Shown here one piece after another: positions 10,328 to 14,950 of a stretch of 38,728 nt of DNA. Source of the DNA: Lachnospiraceae bacterium (GTDB lineage Bacteria; Bacillota; Clostridia; Lachnospirales; Lachnospiraceae). The stretch is taken from NCBI GenBank assembly GCA_024698885.1, contig JAILQQ010000256.1, positions 1 through 38,728 on the forward strand, in the 5' to 3' direction. The position numbers and the translations under genes were made by a program. Every line of letters starts with the position of its first letter. The stretch's first letter is position 1. A model generated the notes under the pieces. The model searched no databases. It was not told the origin of the DNA and saw nothing but the letters and a program-made list of their open reading frames with translations.

Positions 10328-11437
10328 ATGAGGTATTGTAAGAGGTGTGTGATGCCGGACACGAGGCCCGGTATCCGGTTTGACGAGGAAGGGATCTGTT
10401 CGGCCTGCCGTTCATATGAAGCGCAGAAGACGGTGGACTGGGACAAAAGATGGAAGGAATTTGAGAGCCTCTGTGACAAGTACAGGGGAATGAACGGGGA
10501 TGGCTATGACTGCATGATCGCCGTCAGCGGCGGCAAGGACAGTCATTTCCAGACGGATCTGATGAAGAACCGGCTGGACATGAATCCGATTTTAGTCAGC
10601 GTAGAGGATAATTTCCCCATGACAGACGCCGGCATGCACAATATCAAAAATCTTTCGGAGGAGTTTGGTTGCCCGATCATCAGCCTGAAGCCGGATATCA
10701 AGGCGCAGAAGACGGTGATGCGCCATACCTTTGAGAAGTACGGAAAGCCGACCTGGTTCGTAGACCGGCTGATCTATACCTTCCCGATGATCATGGCCCT
10801 GCGTTTCAATACGCCGTTACTTGTATATGGGGAAAACGTGAGTCATGAATACGGCGGGGTAGAGGATGAGGAAACCTATTCGGCCAGAGCGCAGATCAAT
10901 AACGGCGTGGCCGCCGAGATCGATTTTGACGAGCTCTGCAGCCTGCCGGGGATCGACAGAAAGGTGCTTTCCCTGTTAAAGGCACCGGAACCGGAGGAGA
11001 TCAATAAGCTCGATCCGATCTATGTGTCCTATTTTGTTCCCTGGAACAGTGTGGCAAACTATCAGTTCGCAAAGAAGCACGGCTTCCATGACCTGACCCA
11101 TGAATGGCGCCGGACGGAAGAGGTTCAGGACTTTGACCAGGTGGACAGCAGAGCGTATATGGTACATCCCTGGATGAAATATCCGAAATTCGGACATGCT
11201 TCCGGCACCGATCACGCGTCGCGCCTCGTGCGCTATGGCATCCTGAGCAGAGATGAGGCCGTCGCTCTGGTAAAGGAAAGAGACGGGAATCTGGATCCGC
11301 TTTGCGTAAGGGATTTCTGCGATTTCTGCGGATATACGGAAACCGAGTTCTGGAAGGTCGTTGACAGCTTTTATAATCCGGAGATCTTTGAGCGCAATGA
11401 GCGCAATGAATGGGTGCTGAAGGAGCCTTTGCAGTAG
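10328..11437 (+). CDS. N-acetyl sugar amidotransferase-like ATP-pyrophosphatase (PseA/WbpG type)
   Basis: The 369-residue protein has the N-type ATP-pyrophosphatase loop SGGKDS at 67-72, an N-terminal four-cysteine knuckle (C4, C7, C24, C27) and a second cysteine group near the C-terminus (C326, C331, C334). This pattern, starting RYCKRCVMPDTRP, is typical of the PseA/WbpG/WbuX family, which adenylates a sugar or related substrate and replaces oxygen with ammonia, usually with HisH/HisF-like partners as ammonia source. No surface-polysaccharide genes or HisH/HisF partners are near. It sits 16 bases after the ammonium transporter with GGAGG 5 bases before its ATG, so it is surely co-transcribed and is likely part of ammonium handling. 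The true substrate cannot be read from the sequence. Confidence 0.8.
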   Translation: MRYCKRCVMPDTRPGIRFDEEGICSACRSYEAQKTVDWDKRWKEFESLCDKYRGMNGDGYDCMIAVSGGKDSHFQTDLMKNRLDMNPILVSVEDNFPMTDAGMHNIKNLSEEFGCPIISLKPDIKAQKTVMRHTFEKYGKPTWFVDRLIYTFPMIMALRFNTPLLVYGENVSHEYGGVEDEETYSARAQINNGVAAEIDFDELCSLPGIDRKVLSLLKAPEPEEINKLDPIYVSYFVPWNSVANYQFAKKHGFHDLTHEWRRTEEVQDFDQVDSRAYMVHPWMKYPKFGHASGTDHASRLVRYGILSRDEAVALVKERDGNLDPLCVRDFCDFCGYTETEFWKVVDSFYNPEIFERNERNEWVLKEPLQ

Positions 11438-11491: not shown

Positions 11492-11542
11492 GGCTTCAGA
11501 GCAGCGCACGGTCTGCAGGCAGACCGGCGAAAAAGAGGAAAT

Positions 11543-11568
11543 GATCCGGTCGGAGAACCGACCGGATC
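11543..11568. repeat. Perfect 11-bp hairpin, GATCCGG-type dispersed repeat
   Basis: The arms GATCCGGTCGG and CCGACCGGATC are perfect around an AGAA loop. The 15-bp sequence starting 6 bases earlier (11537-11551, GGAAATGATCCGGTC) recurs exactly at 12099-12113 in the lysR leader, and a related GATCCGGCC unit lies at 12061. This is a small local family of GATCCGG repeats of unknown role. Confidence 0.55.
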
Positions 11569-11600
11569 GGCATGAACAGGTTTATATGGTGACAAAGAGA

Positions 11601-11632
11601 GGGGGCTGCCTGCCTTTGGCAGAACAGCCCCC
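11601..11632 (-). terminator. Probable terminator of the minus-strand small-peptide unit
   Basis: GGGGGCTG (11601-11608) pairs with CAGCCCCC (11625-11632), with an inner TGCC/GGCA stem. On the minus strand the hairpin is followed by TCTCTTTGT, a modest U-rich tail; on the plus strand no T-run follows. It therefore fits as the end of a transcript reading leftward from about 11,969. Confidence 0.45.
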
Positions 11633-11815
11633 ATCCCGCTTAAGTATGTATTGAGATAACTGTTTAGGACAGCCCGAAGCACTTGCTGCTGAGGGCGTAC
11701 CAAAATGTGGGTTTTGCGATGCGGTCCGTCCTTTTGCGAAGCAAAACCTTCCATGACGGGCCGCATATCAGTTCAGAGCCCAGAGGGTTCTGAACTGATA
11801 TGTATTGAGATTTTT
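11633..11815 (-). ncRNA. Structured 3' region downstream of the small peptide, candidate regulatory RNA
   Basis: Between the 24-codon ORF and the probable terminator, the minus strand can form strong hairpins but shows no gene. A perfect 14-bp stem pairs 11764-11777 with 11789-11802. A compound stem pairs ATGCGGTCCGTC (11719 region) with GACGGGCCGCAT ending near 11766, and carries an inner TTTTGC/GCAAAA hairpin. The 13-bp sequence TATGTATTGAGAT (plus strand) occurs at 11645-11657 and 11799-11811, outside the main stems. This resembles a structured untranslated region or a dual-function small RNA; expression is not shown. Confidence 0.3.
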
Positions 11816-11890
11816 TTAGTGGAACGCATGCTCACATTCGATGTAGTATTCCTCTAAGAACTCGGTGATCGCCATAAGTATTTTCTTCAT
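11816..11890 (-). CDS. 24-residue small protein, divergent from lysR
   Basis: A short reading frame runs from ATG at 11890 to TAA at 11816, encoding 24 residues: it begins MKKILMAITEFLEEYY and ends IECEHAFH. AAAAAGGAGG lies 8 bases before the ATG, as strong as any site in this window. The peptide is amphipathic, acidic in the middle and has one cysteine followed by two histidines. It has no signal-peptide cleavage site and no recognised family. It is divergent from a LysR regulator, the usual position of the regulator's main target, and the shared LysR box is about 66 bases upstream of its inferred transcription start. It may be a small regulatory protein, a membrane-surface peptide or the coding part of a dual-function RNA. 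Confidence 0.6.
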   Translation of the reverse strand: MKKILMAITEFLEEYYIECEHAFH

Positions 11891-11975
11891 GATCGTTGCC
11901 TCCTTTTTCTGAATGTTTTTTATTTTTTTTCTCTCAAACTTTTTTGAAATTCTTTTGTTTTCTCTTTCTGGTTAT

Positions 11976-11981
11976 AAGATA
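11976..11981 (-). promoter_or_regulatory. Candidate -10 element of the small-peptide promoter
   Basis: On the minus strand TATCTT (11981 to 11976) would place the transcription start near 11969, leaving a leader of about 79 bases. The -35 region at 12004-11999 reads TTTATT, which is poor. A weak -35 together with a LysR box centred about 66 bases upstream is the usual layout of an activator-dependent LysR target promoter. An overlapping TATAAC at 11976-11971 is an alternative. Confidence 0.35.
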
Positions 11982-12016
11982 GCACAAAGTTTTTTAAAAA
12001 TAAAATACATATATTA

Positions 12017-12045
12017 TTGCAACTATGATACCTTTTTGATATGAT
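12017..12045 (+). promoter_or_regulatory. lysR promoter, overlapped by its own LysR box
   Basis: TTGCAA (12017-12022) and TATGAT (12040-12045) are separated by 17 bases and would start transcription near 12052. The LysR box core at 12028-12042 occupies the spacer and reaches the -10, so binding there should repress lysR. Confidence 0.55.
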
Positions 12046-12049
12046 AAAT
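12023..12049. promoter_or_regulatory. LysR-type binding site in the divergent promoter region
   Basis: The core ATACCTTTTTGATAT (12028-12042) has the T-N11-A form of LysR-family boxes. The 27-base stretch is 21/27 identical to the sequence at 13036-13062 upstream of asnB. Its position suits repression of lysR and activation of the divergent small ORF. Confidence 0.6.
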
Positions 12050-12144
12050 TCGGACCGCATGATCCGGCCTGAAAAGTGGATCGGATCGGCGCGGAAACGG
12101 AAATGATCCGGTCTGAAAAGCAGACTGGCGCAGGGAGGGTTACT

Positions 12145-13035
12145 ATGGATCTGCGTGAAATACGTTATTTTCTGACGGTGGCGGAGGAGCTGAATATTAC
12201 CAGAGCCGCTGAAAAACTGCATATCTCTCAGCCGCCCTTAAGCCGGGCCATTATGGACCTGGAGGAGGAGCTGAACTGCACGCTGATGGTCAGGGGCAAG
12301 CGGAAGATCACCCTTACCCCGGAGGGGCTTGCGCTCAAACGGAGAGGGGCCCAGCTGCTGTCTCTCGCGGAGATGACAAAGGAAGAGATCACCGAAATGG
12401 AAAACGGTATCAACGGTACGCTCTATCTGGGACTGGTTGAGGGCGCGGGACCTTTTCTGGCGGCTGACTGGCTTGCGGGATTCAAACAGCTTTATCCCCG
12501 GGTGAGTTATGAACTGTGGAACGGAAACGCGGACGACCTGACCGACCGGCTGAAGGAAGGGATGATCGAGCTTGCGATCACGATGGAGCCCTTCAACCGG
12601 GAGATCCTGGACGGCTTTCCTGTTAAGGAGGAGCCCTGGGTCGCGATCATTCCCGGCGATCATCCGCTTTCGAAGATCCGCAGGAGGACCATTTCACCGG
12701 CAGAGCTTTCCGACGTTGACCTGATCATCCCCTCGAGACGATCCAGACGTGCGGAGATCGATGAACTGTTCAGGCGCAGCGGTGCGGAACCCGTCTACCG
12801 GGTGATGATCGCGCACTCCTCAAACGCGCTGGAGCTGGCGGCCCACGGCATCGGCATTGCCATTTTCCCGGCGTCTGTGGGCATGGATCTGAGCAATACG
12901 GTAAACGTGACGGTAAAGGAACTGCGTCCGCTCATTAAGGCGACATATCTTTTAGCCTGGGATAAAGAGAAGACGTTAAGCAGTCTGGCGGCAAAGTTCA
13001 TCGAATTTGTCCAAATGTCTTCTGTGACCGAATGA
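12145..13035 (+). CDS. LysR-family transcriptional regulator
   Basis: The 296-residue protein has the family's N-terminal winged helix-turn-helix (LREIRYFLTVAEELN, then ITRAAEKLHISQPPLSRAI, residues about 3-40) followed by a two-lobed effector-binding domain. The ATG at 12145 is preceded by GGGAGGG; a longer in-frame start at 12076 has no ribosome binding site. It lies between a divergent small ORF and asnB, and near-identical LysR boxes sit at both places, so the expected roles are autorepression and control of both neighbours. The effector is unknown; glutamine, asparagine or ammonium status would fit the setting. The upstream leader (about 12052-12144) contains GATCCGG repeats. Confidence 0.93.
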   Translation: MDLREIRYFLTVAEELNITRAAEKLHISQPPLSRAIMDLEEELNCTLMVRGKRKITLTPEGLALKRRGAQLLSLAEMTKEEITEMENGINGTLYLGLVEGAGPFLAADWLAGFKQLYPRVSYELWNGNADDLTDRLKEGMIELAITMEPFNREILDGFPVKEEPWVAIIPGDHPLSKIRRRTISPAELSDVDLIIPSRRSRRAEIDELFRRSGAEPVYRVMIAHSSNALELAAHGIGIAIFPASVGMDLSNTVNVTVKELRPLIKATYLLAWDKEKTLSSLAAKFIEFVQMSSVTE

Positions 13036-13062
13036 TTATCATACCTTTAAGGTATGGTAAAT
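13036..13062. promoter_or_regulatory. LysR-type binding site upstream of asnB
   Basis: The core ATACCTTTAAGGTAT (13041-13055) is a perfect palindrome with T-N11-A spacing. It begins directly after the lysR stop codon. Its centre is about 64 bases before the inferred asnB transcription start, the classic recognition-site position for LysR activators. Confidence 0.7.
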
Positions 13063-13076
13063 GGATATTTATTCAC

Positions 13077-13105
13077 TTGACAGCGAAACAGAATCGTTTT
13101 ATATT
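13077..13105 (+). promoter_or_regulatory. asnB promoter
   Basis: A consensus -35 TTGACA (13077-13082) is followed after 17 bases by a near-consensus -10 TATATT (13100-13105). The start would be near 13112, giving a leader of about 240 bases that contains a terminator hairpin and a palindromic repeat element. Confidence 0.75.
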
Positions 13106-13122
13106 CTTTAGTAATGAGCAAG

Positions 13123-13173
13123 GGCGTTCATTTAAGCTGAGAGGTTTCGGCTTAAGTGAATGCCTCTTTTTTT
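13123..13173 (+). terminator. Terminator hairpin at the start of the asnB leader
   Basis: A 15-bp stem with two G-U pairs joins 13123-13137 and 13150-13164 around a 12-base loop, followed by TC and seven T residues (13167-13173). It lies only about 11 bases after the inferred asnB transcription start, so it could be an attenuator for asnB, the end of a short RNA of about 60 bases, or a terminator for lysR readthrough. Confidence 0.8.
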
Positions 13174-13182
13174 GTTAAGGAG

Positions 13183-13330
13183 CTGTGCAGAAATAACATT
13201 ACAAGATTACGCAGGATTTTTCTTCGAGATCGTTTTGCAAGATGAAGGAGCATAGCGGGCTATGTGACTGAATCTTGCAAGATGAGATCGGAGGAAAAGA
13301 CAAGCAAGATGTAAGGTTATTTCTGCACAG
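13183..13330. repeat. 148-bp imperfect palindrome, MITE-like element in the asnB leader
   Basis: The ends CTGTGCAGAAATAAC (from 13183) and their reverse complement (to 13330) match with one difference over about 20 bases. The centre is CATAGC/GCTATG at 13251-13264, with TTGCAAGAT/ATCTTGCAA arms around it, so the symmetry runs through the whole element. It has no gene. The right end stops 5 bases before the asnB ribosome binding site. It resembles a non-autonomous miniature transposable element or a large dispersed palindrome. Confidence 0.7.
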
Positions 13331-13351
13331 ATCCGAAAGGAGGATAGTGGG

Positions 13352-14950
13352 ATGTGTTCCGTCATGGGTTATTTGGGAGAGCAGTTCTCCTTTGATGCGT
13401 TTAAGGAGGGGCTGTTAAAGACAAAATCAAGGGGGCCGGATGATACCCGGATCGCTTCTCTGACTGATGCCGGGGAAACCATAGGATATCTGGGCTTTAA
13501 CCGCCTGTCCATCATGGGCCTGACGCCTTCGGGCATGCAGCCTTTTCAGTTTGAAGGGAATTATCTTTCCTGTAACGGAGAAATATACGGTTTTCAGGAG
13601 ATCCGAGAAGAGCTGATCGGGAAAGGCTACTCCTTTGAAAGCGACAGCGACTGTGAGATCCTGCTTCCTTTATATAAGGAATACGGTACCGGCATGTTTC
13701 AGATGCTGGATGCCGAGTATGCTCTGATCCTGTATGACGGGAAGAGCAAAAGTCTGATTGCGGCAAGAGACCCGATCGGTATAAGACCTCTATACTACGG
13801 GTATGACATTTTGGGTTCGATCATCTTTGCCAGCGAGCCCAAAAATCTTGCGGGCATGGTTGATAAGATCATGCCATTTCCTCCGGGGCATTACTACGAG
13901 AACGGCGCGTTTCACTGCTACCGCGATATTACCGCAGTAAAGACGGTATGCCGGGATGACCTGGAAACCGTTTGTCAGAATATTCATGACAAGCTGATTG
14001 CGGGTGTCAAAAAACGTCTGGTCTCGGATTCCAGGATCGGCTTCCTGCTGTCAGGAGGTCTGGACTCCTCTCTGGTGTGCGCGATAGCTGCCAGAGAGAG
14101 TAATGTCCCTATACATACCTTTGCTATCGGGATGAAGGCGGATGCCATCGACTTAAAGTACGCAAAGGAAGTGGCGGAATTTATCGACAGTGATCATACA
14201 GAGGTGATTATCACGCCGGAGGATGTCCTTGGGGCGCTTGAAGGTGTGATCCATCTGCTCGGAACCTATGATATTACGACGATCCGGGCCAGCATGGGCA
14301 TGTATCTGGTCTGCAAGGCGATCCATGAACAGACGGATCTCAGAGTGATACTGACAGGAGAGATCTCGGATGAGCTGTTTGGCTATAAATATACCGACTT
14401 TGCCCCAAACGCGGCGGAATTTCAGAAGGAAGCCGTCAAGCGCATTTCCGAGATCCATATGTATGATGTGCTGCGGGCCGACCGCTGCATCTCGGTGAAC
14501 TCTCTGGAGGCCAGGGTACCCTTTGGGGATCTTGACTTTGCGGCGTATGTGATGACTGTCGATCCGGAGCTTAAGCTGAATAAATATAATAAGGGAAAAT
14601 ATCTGCTGCGGCACGCTTTTGAGGCGGATGAGCTCCTGCCGCAGGATATCCTGTTTCGGGAGAAGGCAGCCTTTTCCGATGCGGTAGGACATTCAATGGT
14701 CGATCTGCTGAAGGACAGGGCCGCAGAGCTGTACTCGGATGAGGCTTATGAGGAGAAGCGGAAACAGTACAGCTTTGCGATGCCATTCACGAAGGAATCC
14801 CTGATGTACCGGGAGATCTTCGAAAAATTCTATCCCGGCCAGGCGGAGATGGTGAAGGATTTCTGGATGCCAAACAGGGAGTGGGAGGGCTGCGATGTGA
14901 ACGATCCTTCTGCGCGGGTACTGGCCAATTATGGCAGTAGTGGAGTATAA
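13352..14950 (+). CDS. asnB: Asparagine synthase (glutamine-hydrolysing)
   Basis: AsnB makes asparagine from aspartate, glutamine and ATP through an aspartyl-AMP intermediate. The 532-residue protein has the N-terminal nucleophile Cys2 (MCSVMGYLG; Met removal exposes it), NGEIYGF at 75-81 in the glutaminase domain, and the ATP-pyrophosphatase loop SGGLDSS at 234-240. Length and motifs match the bacterial AsnB family. AAAGGAGG lies 8 bases before the ATG at 13352. Its promoter carries a LysR box, so the adjacent regulator probably controls it. The last codons and stop lie in the first copy of a 27-bp direct repeat whose second copy precedes guaA. Confidence 0.95.
   Translation: MCSVMGYLGEQFSFDAFKEGLLKTKSRGPDDTRIASLTDAGETIGYLGFNRLSIMGLTPSGMQPFQFEGNYLSCNGEIYGFQEIREELIGKGYSFESDSDCEILLPLYKEYGTGMFQMLDAEYALILYDGKSKSLIAARDPIGIRPLYYGYDILGSIIFASEPKNLAGMVDKIMPFPPGHYYENGAFHCYRDITAVKTVCRDDLETVCQNIHDKLIAGVKKRLVSDSRIGFLLSGGLDSSLVCAIAARESNVPIHTFAIGMKADAIDLKYAKEVAEFIDSDHTEVIITPEDVLGALEGVIHLLGTYDITTIRASMGMYLVCKAIHEQTDLRVILTGEISDELFGYKYTDFAPNAAEFQKEAVKRISEIHMYDVLRADRCISVNSLEARVPFGDLDFAAYVMTVDPELKLNKYNKGKYLLRHAFEADELLPQDILFREKAAFSDAVGHSMVDLLKDRAAELYSDEAYEEKRKQYSFAMPFTKESLMYREIFEKFYPGQAEMVKDFWMPNREWEGCDVNDPSARVLANYGSSGV

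What the first reader, a model, noticed from the sequence alone, without database searches (positions are those of the whole stretch)
11816..13112. LysR regulator controlling a divergent 24-residue peptide and asnB, inferred from two matching boxes
A 27-base stretch with a T-N11-A core occurs between lysR and the small ORF (12023-12049) and upstream of asnB (13036-13062), identical at 21 of 27 positions. The first copy sits inside the lysR promoter (between TTGCAA and TATGAT) and about 66 bases before the peptide's start, the second about 64 bases before the asnB start. This is the standard layout for autorepression plus activation of two targets. The peptide gene is too short for normal annotation but has a strong ribosome binding site. 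A tiny protein co-regulated with asparagine synthesis in an ammonium cluster is a candidate new regulator, possibly of glutamine synthetase III, GOGAT or AsnB.
Basis: partly seen in the sequence, partly recalled or inferred. Interest (0 to 1): 0.75.

Follow-up and report, generated by a model that had tools for sequence, protein, structure and literature searches.

The report
A micropeptide with its own regulator
A 24-amino-acid peptide, too small for normal gene annotation, turns out to belong to a gene family conserved across a group of gut bacteria and apparently switched by one dedicated LysR-type regulator, possibly as part of how these cells handle nitrogen.

Summary
Both boxes exist: 21 of 27 bases identical, reached by 0 of 300 shuffles. 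The 24-codon ORF belongs to an undescribed Lachnospiraceae family of 16-26 residue peptides with an EYYxxF-like core. Fourteen genus copies show pN/pS 0.13. Peptide and LysR co-occur: 21 of 37 genus genomes have both, 14 neither, 1 each alone, even where they lie on different contigs. Their shared operator is ATACC-N5-GGTAT, 15 bases, ATATGTATTT. Best model: the LysR represses itself and activates a single-gene micropeptide unit, its main conserved output; the peptide acts in trans, plausibly on nitrogen assimilation. The nitrogen link rests on gene neighbourhood only: 8 of 22 genus loci, 0 of 8 mapped outside the genus. The asnB half is weaker. Box 2 is the genome's only perfect box, but 0 of 22 relatives read have a box upstream of asnB, the second operator element is missing, and a terminator and an inserted repeat precede asnB. 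No expression or binding data exist.

The parts
11816..11890 (-). micropeptide gene, 24 codons: MKKILMAITEFLEEYYIECEHAFH
   Evidence: family alignment A2; selection on codons in relatives
11899..11903 (-). Shine-Dalgarno GGAGG of the peptide gene
   Evidence: Shine-Dalgarno sites listed for relatives
11962..11971 (-). conserved transcription-start motif CCAGAAAGAG of the peptide gene
   Evidence: CAGAAAGAGG 97% identical over 14 genus copies, window not among them
11972..11981 (-). -10 region TATCTTATAA of the peptide promoter
   Evidence: aligned position, by eye
12000..12012 (-). second operator element ATATGTATTTTAT (overlaps the presumed lysR -10 on the other strand), 15 bases from box 1
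   Evidence: 100% identical in 14 genus copies, window not among them
12028..12042 (.). box 1, presumed LysR primary site (ATACCTTTTTGATAT)
12145..13035 (+). LysR-type regulator, 296 aa (HTH_1 plus LysR_substrate)
   Evidence: tree
13041..13055 (.). box 2, perfect primary site (ATACCTTTAAGGTAT), no second element at the fixed spacing
13077..13105 (+). TTGACA-17-TATATT promoter ahead of asnB
   Evidence: similar promoters ahead of asnB in 9 relatives
13116..13173 (+). asnB leader: GAGC[AAGGGC]GTTC hexaloop hairpin overlapping an intrinsic terminator (13122-13165 plus T-run)
13176..13340 (.). MITE-like inverted-repeat element between leader and asnB
   Evidence: near full-length copies at 95% (C198) and 93% (C107) elsewhere in the genome, plus two short fragments
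13352..14950 (+). asnB, asparagine synthase B
   Evidence: NF006949, above cut-off

Best explanation
A dedicated LysR-type regulator controls a single-gene micropeptide unit. The regulator binds ATACC-N5-GGTAT and, 15 bases further, ATATGTATTT. There it covers its own start region (autorepression) and activates the peptide promoter from a position centred about 65 bases before the transcription start. The peptide has 16-26 residues and in most members could form an amphipathic helix with an EYYxxF-like core. Apart from lysR itself it is the only conserved target found. The peptide most likely works in trans by binding and tuning another protein; a nitrogen-assimilation enzyme or transporter is the best candidate because of the lysR gene's neighbours. 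In this genome asnB may have been added to the circuit through box 2. Shown by sequence: gene, selection, operator, co-occurrence, single-gene layout in many relatives. Inferred: binding, activation, helix, target, nitrogen role.
For: Codon selection, on the 14 genus copies of 29 that align without gaps: pS 0.794, pN 0.105; diversity at codon positions 1/2/3 is 0.117/0.058/0.421, and 0 of 20,000 permutations reached the third-position value; shifted frames are open in 1 and 6 of 14. In the same 14: ORF 79% identical, 5' leader remainder 38%, 3' flank 38%, second operator element 100%, so the peptide rather than the RNA is what is kept. Operator: 26 of 29 genus peptide hits have a box within 350 bases; so do 13 of the 19 loci examined out of 33 family-level rows, and the other 6 look like chance hits. 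Searching by operator alone in 37 genus genomes gave 24 sites: 22 at peptide genes, 1 at a lone lysR, 1 apparently chance; reversed control 1. The strict box pattern gave 14 sites: 9 at peptide modules, 1 at a lone lysR, 1 box 2 and 3 strays with GC-rich centres; reversed control 3. Co-occurrence in 37 genus genomes: 21 both, 14 neither, 1 lysR only (its contig ends upstream of lysR), 1 peptide only (59% complete genome); Fisher 3.5e-8, ignoring relatedness. An HTH query in 47 chosen genomes matched 0 of 35 without the module, and 10 of 12 others. The two genes lie on different contigs in 9 genus genomes and in G365, G079, G317, G124 and G290. The regulators, including those beside peptides, form one group of 34 with support 97/92 against only 4 paralogues. 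Nitrogen neighbours at 8 of 22 genus lysR loci. Helical moment above 95% of shuffles in 23 of 30 distinct peptides.
Against: No expression, binding or translation data exist. Peptides away from lysR sit among unrelated genes, and 0 of 8 mapped lysR loci outside the genus have the nitrogen cluster. The window's own peptide is not among the strongly amphipathic ones (12% of shuffles as high). G408 and G425 peptides lack a clear start, and G305 has regulator and operator but no recognisable peptide. G405, G425 and the second G421 copy show no box. By pattern, no operator turned up in front of nitrogen genes other than box 2 (strict patterns could miss weaker sites). The hairpin behind the peptide gene in the window lacks a T-run in the peptide's direction.
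Confidence: 0.6

Rival explanations
1. The peptide is the regulator's own partner: it binds the LysR protein and closes a feedback loop instead of acting on an enzyme.
For: Near one-to-one co-occurrence of peptide and regulator even on different contigs, and almost no other conserved operator sites found by pattern.
Against: LysR regulators usually take small-molecule ligands in the LysR_substrate domain, which is present here (family knowledge). G365 has four peptide copies and one regulator match. Nothing tests binding.
Confidence: 0.2
2. The transcript is a regulatory small RNA, and the short ORF is only part of it.
For: Short transcript unit, in many relatives with a hairpin close behind the stop codon (by eye); conserved first ten bases.
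Against: Leader remainder and 3' region are at 38% identity, while the ORF keeps its amino acids through synonymous change. Peptides recur with unrelated flanks across genera.
Confidence: 0.07
3. asnB is a true second target: LysR bound at box 2 activates asnB together with the peptide. This can be true alongside the best explanation.
For: Box 2 is the only perfect match in 3.71 Mb, and it lies about 64 bases before a near-consensus promoter, the same geometry as at the peptide.
Against: 0 of 22 relatives read have a box in up to 700 bases upstream of asnB. The second element is absent at the fixed spacing. The -35 is already consensus. A terminator and an inserted repeat lie in between. Relatives show the same promoter plus terminator leader without LysR boxes, so leader control alone may suffice.
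Confidence: 0.4
4. The peptide is a small membrane-active toxin or a secreted signal.
For: Short, partly amphipathic, several copies in G365.
Against: Charged with no long hydrophobic stretch (sequence); no export or processing gene was noticed beside it, but neighbours were compared only by clustering and by eye.
Confidence: 0.05

Closest known systems
WatR and its WatS small ORFs in Methylomonas (PMC10355033; abstract and passages seen)
   Same: A LysR-type regulator with a palindromic N11 site that autoregulates and controls previously unannotated small ORFs.
   Different: WatS proteins have about 50 residues, WatS1-4 with a predicted membrane segment; WatR also controls an efflux pump. Here the peptide has 16-26 residues, and it and lysR are the only conserved targets found.
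Cyanobacterial glutamine synthetase inactivating factors IF7 and IF17 (PMC7760959; passages seen)
   Same: Small proteins made under control of a transcription regulator, tuning nitrogen assimilation in trans (the latter only proposed here).
   Different: 65 and 149 residues, repressed by NtcA, and shown to bind glutamine synthetase. No binding partner is known here.
Methanosarcina mazei small proteins sP26 (glutamine synthetase) and sP36 (ammonium transporter) (PMC11456600; passages seen)
   Same: Small proteins acting on the kinds of targets found beside lysR here.
   Different: Archaeal, with partners shown by experiment; homology not tested.
ANTAR-target leader RNAs (PMC3369931; passages seen)
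   Same: The asnB leader hairpin has a hexaloop with A at position 1 and G at position 4, overlaps a terminator, and similar leaders sit before nitrogen genes.
   Different: Only one hairpin seen; the dual hairpin described for ANTAR targets is absent and there is little room for it after the promoter.

Membership tests
LysR-type transcriptional regulators | N-terminal HTH_1 and C-terminal LysR_substrate domains | tested here: met
   PF00126 78 bits, PF03466 132 bits, both above cut-off
LysR-type transcriptional regulators | T-N11-A palindromic site shared by own promoter and a divergent target | tested here: met
   (sequence only)
LysR-type transcriptional regulators | effector-dependent activation and autorepression | not testable with these tools
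   geometry fits; no expression data
Named LysR groups with nitrogen or related roles (GltC, NAC, AlsR, CidR) | score above the curated NCBIfam cut-off | tested here: not met
   CidR 142 bits against 415; AlsR 139 against 430; GltC 122 against 350; NAC 89 against 309
EYYxxF-like micropeptide family (defined here) | 16-26 residues, EYYxxF-like core, Shine-Dalgarno, operator upstream | tested here: met
   no Pfam or NCBIfam match (PHROGs and PADLOC not searched)
Glutamine synthetase inactivating factors or sP26/sP36 | binding to glutamine synthetase or ammonium transporter | not testable with these tools
   no binding data; peptide below the 30 residues accepted for structure prediction
ANTAR-target RNA (asnB leader) | hexaloop with A1 and G4 overlapping a terminator | tested here: inconclusive
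   window loop AAGGGC fits; of 23 asnB loci placed (window included), 12 have loop plus terminator, all 12 form 4 of 4 stem pairs, but 5 of those 12 loops start with G
ANTAR-target RNA (asnB leader) | two hairpins P1 and P2 | tested here: not met
   the hairpin starts only a few bases after the expected start; no first hairpin seen by eye

The most novel reading that the evidence does not exclude
An undescribed family of roughly 20-residue helical micropeptides is the sole conserved output of a dedicated LysR regulator. The peptide works as an allosteric modulator of the glutamine or ammonium machinery of Lachnospiraceae (type III glutamine synthetase, the ammonium transporter-PII fusion or a glutamine amidotransferase). 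It would be among the smallest genome-encoded enzyme regulators, a counterpart of cyanobacterial IF7 and archaeal sP26/sP36.
Probability: 0.25. Interest if true: 0.85.

Novelty: new variant of a known kind. Interest (0 to 1): 0.62.

Why it matters
Genes of 16-26 codons are normally not annotated, and few have a known regulator (general knowledge). Here one regulator group, one operator and one peptide family travel together in 16 genera by the handles, so the function can be tested in any cultivable Lachnospiraceae that carries them. If the peptide tunes nitrogen assimilation, it would show a new way to control nitrogen flow in these abundant gut bacteria.

Tried and rejected
Single-sequence search with the 24-residue peptide in 397 family genomes found only itself clearly; two places now known to be true relatives (G006, G233) stood there at E 0.14 and 0.74, and a profile was needed. 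Class-wide profile search: besides the window, 3 chance-looking matches in 2 of 391 genomes; only a small part of that sample is from the family, so this suggests but does not prove restriction to Lachnospiraceae. Rfam: nothing at gathering score; permissive matches in 11500-13400 (6, best E 0.00055) were microRNA or sRNA models far below cut-off on hairpins at 11763-11803 and 11533-11692, rejected as chance. A short box-2-driven small RNA of about 60 nt (start near 13112 to terminator 13173) was considered; relatives have the same promoter-terminator layout directly before asnB, so an asnB attenuator leader is preferred. Two-mismatch box search in the own genome gave 168 places on both strands against 106 for the control: not informative. 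A broader operator pattern matched 38 of 397 family genomes with 6 control matches; part of these belong to other LysR groups whose sites precede longer ORFs and not peptides; kept apart. G358 (weak peptide hit, no box), G482 and G656 were dropped as chance. Of the 33 family rows, 19 were examined (short frames or good E-values); the rest were not. The search of solved structures showed BenM, CatM and OxyR-type regulators as nearest, which does not tell the ligand. Literature: searches (the last with peptide strings) listed nothing that describes this peptide or module; supplementary tables could not be read, so it may be listed in a small-protein catalogue. Structure prediction was not used, because the peptide is under 30 residues.

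Full report
OBSERVATION. The window is the whole contig C197 (38,728 bases) of a 3.71-Mb genome; I call it Lachnospiraceae because the closest LysR relative lies in a record of that name. The ORF at 11816-11890 (-) encodes MKKILMAITEFLEEYYIECEHAFH behind a strong Shine-Dalgarno. The two boxes are real, 21 of 27 identical, and beyond chance. Box 2 is the only perfect ATACCTTTNNGGTAT in the genome.

THE PEPTIDE IS A GENE FAMILY. A single-sequence search failed. Looking upstream of LysR relatives in 37 genomes of the same genus (22 with a match) showed divergent short ORFs with the same EEYY-type core. A profile from 11 (A1) and then 25 (A2) peptides gave 29 hits in 22 of 37 genus genomes. In 397 family genomes A1 matched 30 genomes, 33 rows, at E up to 0.1; of 19 loci examined, 13 have the operator upstream and 6 do not and look like chance. 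Four further peptides came from the operator search (G215, G290, G135, G177; G177 read by eye). Counting these and the window's genus, 16 genera carry a peptide. Outside the family nothing convincing turned up in 391 class genomes, few of them from the family. Fourteen of the 29 genus copies, those that align without gaps, give pN/pS 0.13, with diversity concentrated at third codon positions. Their ORF is 79% identical while the leader remainder and the 3' flank are at 38%. So the encoded peptide is what selection keeps. Of 30 distinct peptides, 23 have a helical hydrophobic moment above 95% of their shuffles; the window's own is not among them.

THE OPERATOR. The promoters of 33 peptide genes, 32 of them with a box, show ATACC-N5-GGTAT, 15 bases, ATATGTATTT(T/C)AC, about 22 bases, a TATNATAA-like -10, and a start motif (T)CAGAAAGAGG or (T)CAACAAGAGG (aligned by eye). 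G405 shows no box; G365 has the box but a changed second element. The second element is identical in all 14 genus copies tested. It stays in peptide genes that are not next to lysR, so it is not merely the lysR -10. Searching by operator alone in the genus returned 24 sites: 22 at peptide genes, one at a lone lysR (G428), one with odd spacing that looks like chance. The strict box pattern ATACCTNNNNGGTATGG gave 14 sites and 3 reversed-control sites: nine lie at peptide modules, one at the lone G428 lysR, one is box 2, and three (G397, G430 and one in G418) are strays with GC-rich centres. In the family sample the operator pattern matched 38 of 397 genomes, with six control matches. Part of these belong to other LysR groups placed before longer ORFs.

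REGULATOR AND PEPTIDE TRAVEL TOGETHER. In the genus, 21 genomes have both, 14 neither, one only the regulator (G402, whose contig ends about 200 bases upstream of lysR) and one only the peptide (G405, 59% complete). A 50-residue HTH query was run in 47 chosen genomes. It matched 0 of 35 genomes without the module. Of 11 genomes with a peptide hit or an operator hit it matched 9; the exceptions are G405 and the weak, box-less G358. It also matched G402, already known to hold lysR. In nine genus genomes (G401, G408, G409, G416, G418, G420, G425, G426, G428) and in five others (G365, G079, G317, G124, G290) the two lie on different contigs; these are draft assemblies, but the mapped peptide loci have other genes upstream. 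The regulators form one group of 34 that includes the window's, G402's and G305's (the last two without a seen peptide), with four paralogues outside; the rooting is by midpoint and the program warns of long branches near the window's pair. Further exceptions: G305 has regulator and operator without a recognisable peptide; the G408 and G425 peptides have no clear start.

NITROGEN LINK. In the window lysR lies between an ammonium transporter-PII fusion and asnB (with a sugar amidotransferase-like gene and the peptide in between), with type III glutamine synthetase and a glutamate synthase further left and guaA to the right. In G406 the order is purF, carA, carB, peptide, lysR, ammonium transporter-PII, glutamine synthetase III, asnB, pyrG (glutamine synthetase III in G406 is named by similarity to the window's, which matches GSIII_N; itself returned no family for it). 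Counting the window, 8 of 22 genus lysR loci have such neighbours within the mapped 7 kb, in several different arrangements. Outside the genus 0 of 8 mapped lysR loci do, and peptides away from lysR have unrelated neighbours. I read this as a real but modest hint. By pattern no operator was found before the nitrogen genes themselves other than box 2, so if the circuit touches nitrogen flow it would do so through the peptide.

asnB. No LysR box was found in up to 700 bases upstream of asnB in 22 relatives (27 given, 5 not placed; 32 relatives have asnB). Of 23 asnB loci placed (window included), 12 carry a terminator whose 5' part can instead form a four-pair hexaloop hairpin, and 10 of these 12 have a TTGAC/TATA promoter just before it; 11 do not show this leader. 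The 12 were taken by loop and terminator only, and all 12 keep all four pairs, with stems AAGC/GCTT, GAGC/GCTC, GAGC/GTTC, AAGC/GTTT and GAGC/GCTT. The same leader type precedes glutamine synthetase III, ammonium transporter, purF and carA genes in related clusters (that scan required pairing, so it cannot be used as evidence for pairing). This resembles ANTAR targets but lacks the second hairpin. The window's asnB has this leader and, in addition, a repeat element with other copies in the genome. Box 2 may therefore be a local addition to an asnB gene already controlled in its leader.

MECHANISM. Best-supported: LysR binds the two-part operator, represses lysR and activates the peptide; the peptide acts in trans. 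The first half follows from geometry and conservation plus what is known of LysR regulators; the second half is inference. Rivals are feedback on LysR itself, a small RNA, asnB co-activation as an additional output, and a toxin or signal.

COMPARISON WITH WHAT IS KNOWN. LysR control of small ORFs has a precedent in WatR/WatS. Small proteins acting on glutamine synthetase or the ammonium transporter have precedents in cyanobacteria and Methanosarcina. The peptide matches no Pfam or NCBIfam model, and paper searches listed no description. I file it as a new variant of a known kind: a LysR regulator dedicated to a previously undescribed micropeptide family.

Noticed in passing
window 13116-13173; L112 104, 7224 and 9280; L115 5654; L124 4949 and 7224; L126 9444; L132 6026 and 15085; L133 16612: Short promoter-proximal leaders with a hexaloop hairpin overlapping a terminator precede asnB, glutamine synthetase III, ammonium transporter, purF and carA genes: a possible single-hairpin antitermination regulon for nitrogen genes, ANTAR-like but without the second hairpin.
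   Followed up: partly
window 13176-13340: MITE-like 165-base inverted-repeat element, near full-length copies at 95% and 93% elsewhere in the genome plus two short fragments.
   Followed up: partly
L233, L236, L239, L246, L256, L260: Another LysR group (MDIRVLQYF-type) goes with ATAC(T/C)TTTCAAGTAT, the same 15-base spacing and ATATGTATTTG upstream of longer ORFs (not annotated), so the two-part operator layout is wider than the peptide module.
   Followed up: partly
window 16804-38728: Integrase gene directly behind guaA, then an Ltp-repeat lipoprotein and further right a DNA polymerase beta clamp gene: probably a prophage or integrative element at the guaA 3' end.
   Followed up: partly
window 10328-11437: N-acetyl sugar amidotransferase-like gene (TIGR03573) placed between the ammonium transporter and the peptide, odd company for a nitrogen cluster.
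   Followed up: no
window 11763-11803: Near-perfect 18-base inverted repeat just behind the peptide gene without a T-run in the peptide's direction.
   Followed up: no
start of peptide transcripts in G418, G422, G413, G426, G399 (alignment): The conserved start AGAGG is often followed about 6-8 bases later by its complement (such as CCCTC or TCCTC), which suggests a 5' hairpin; seen by eye only.
   Followed up: no
G365 (L096-L099): Four near-identical peptide copies in one genome, each with its own box and none beside lysR.
   Followed up: partly
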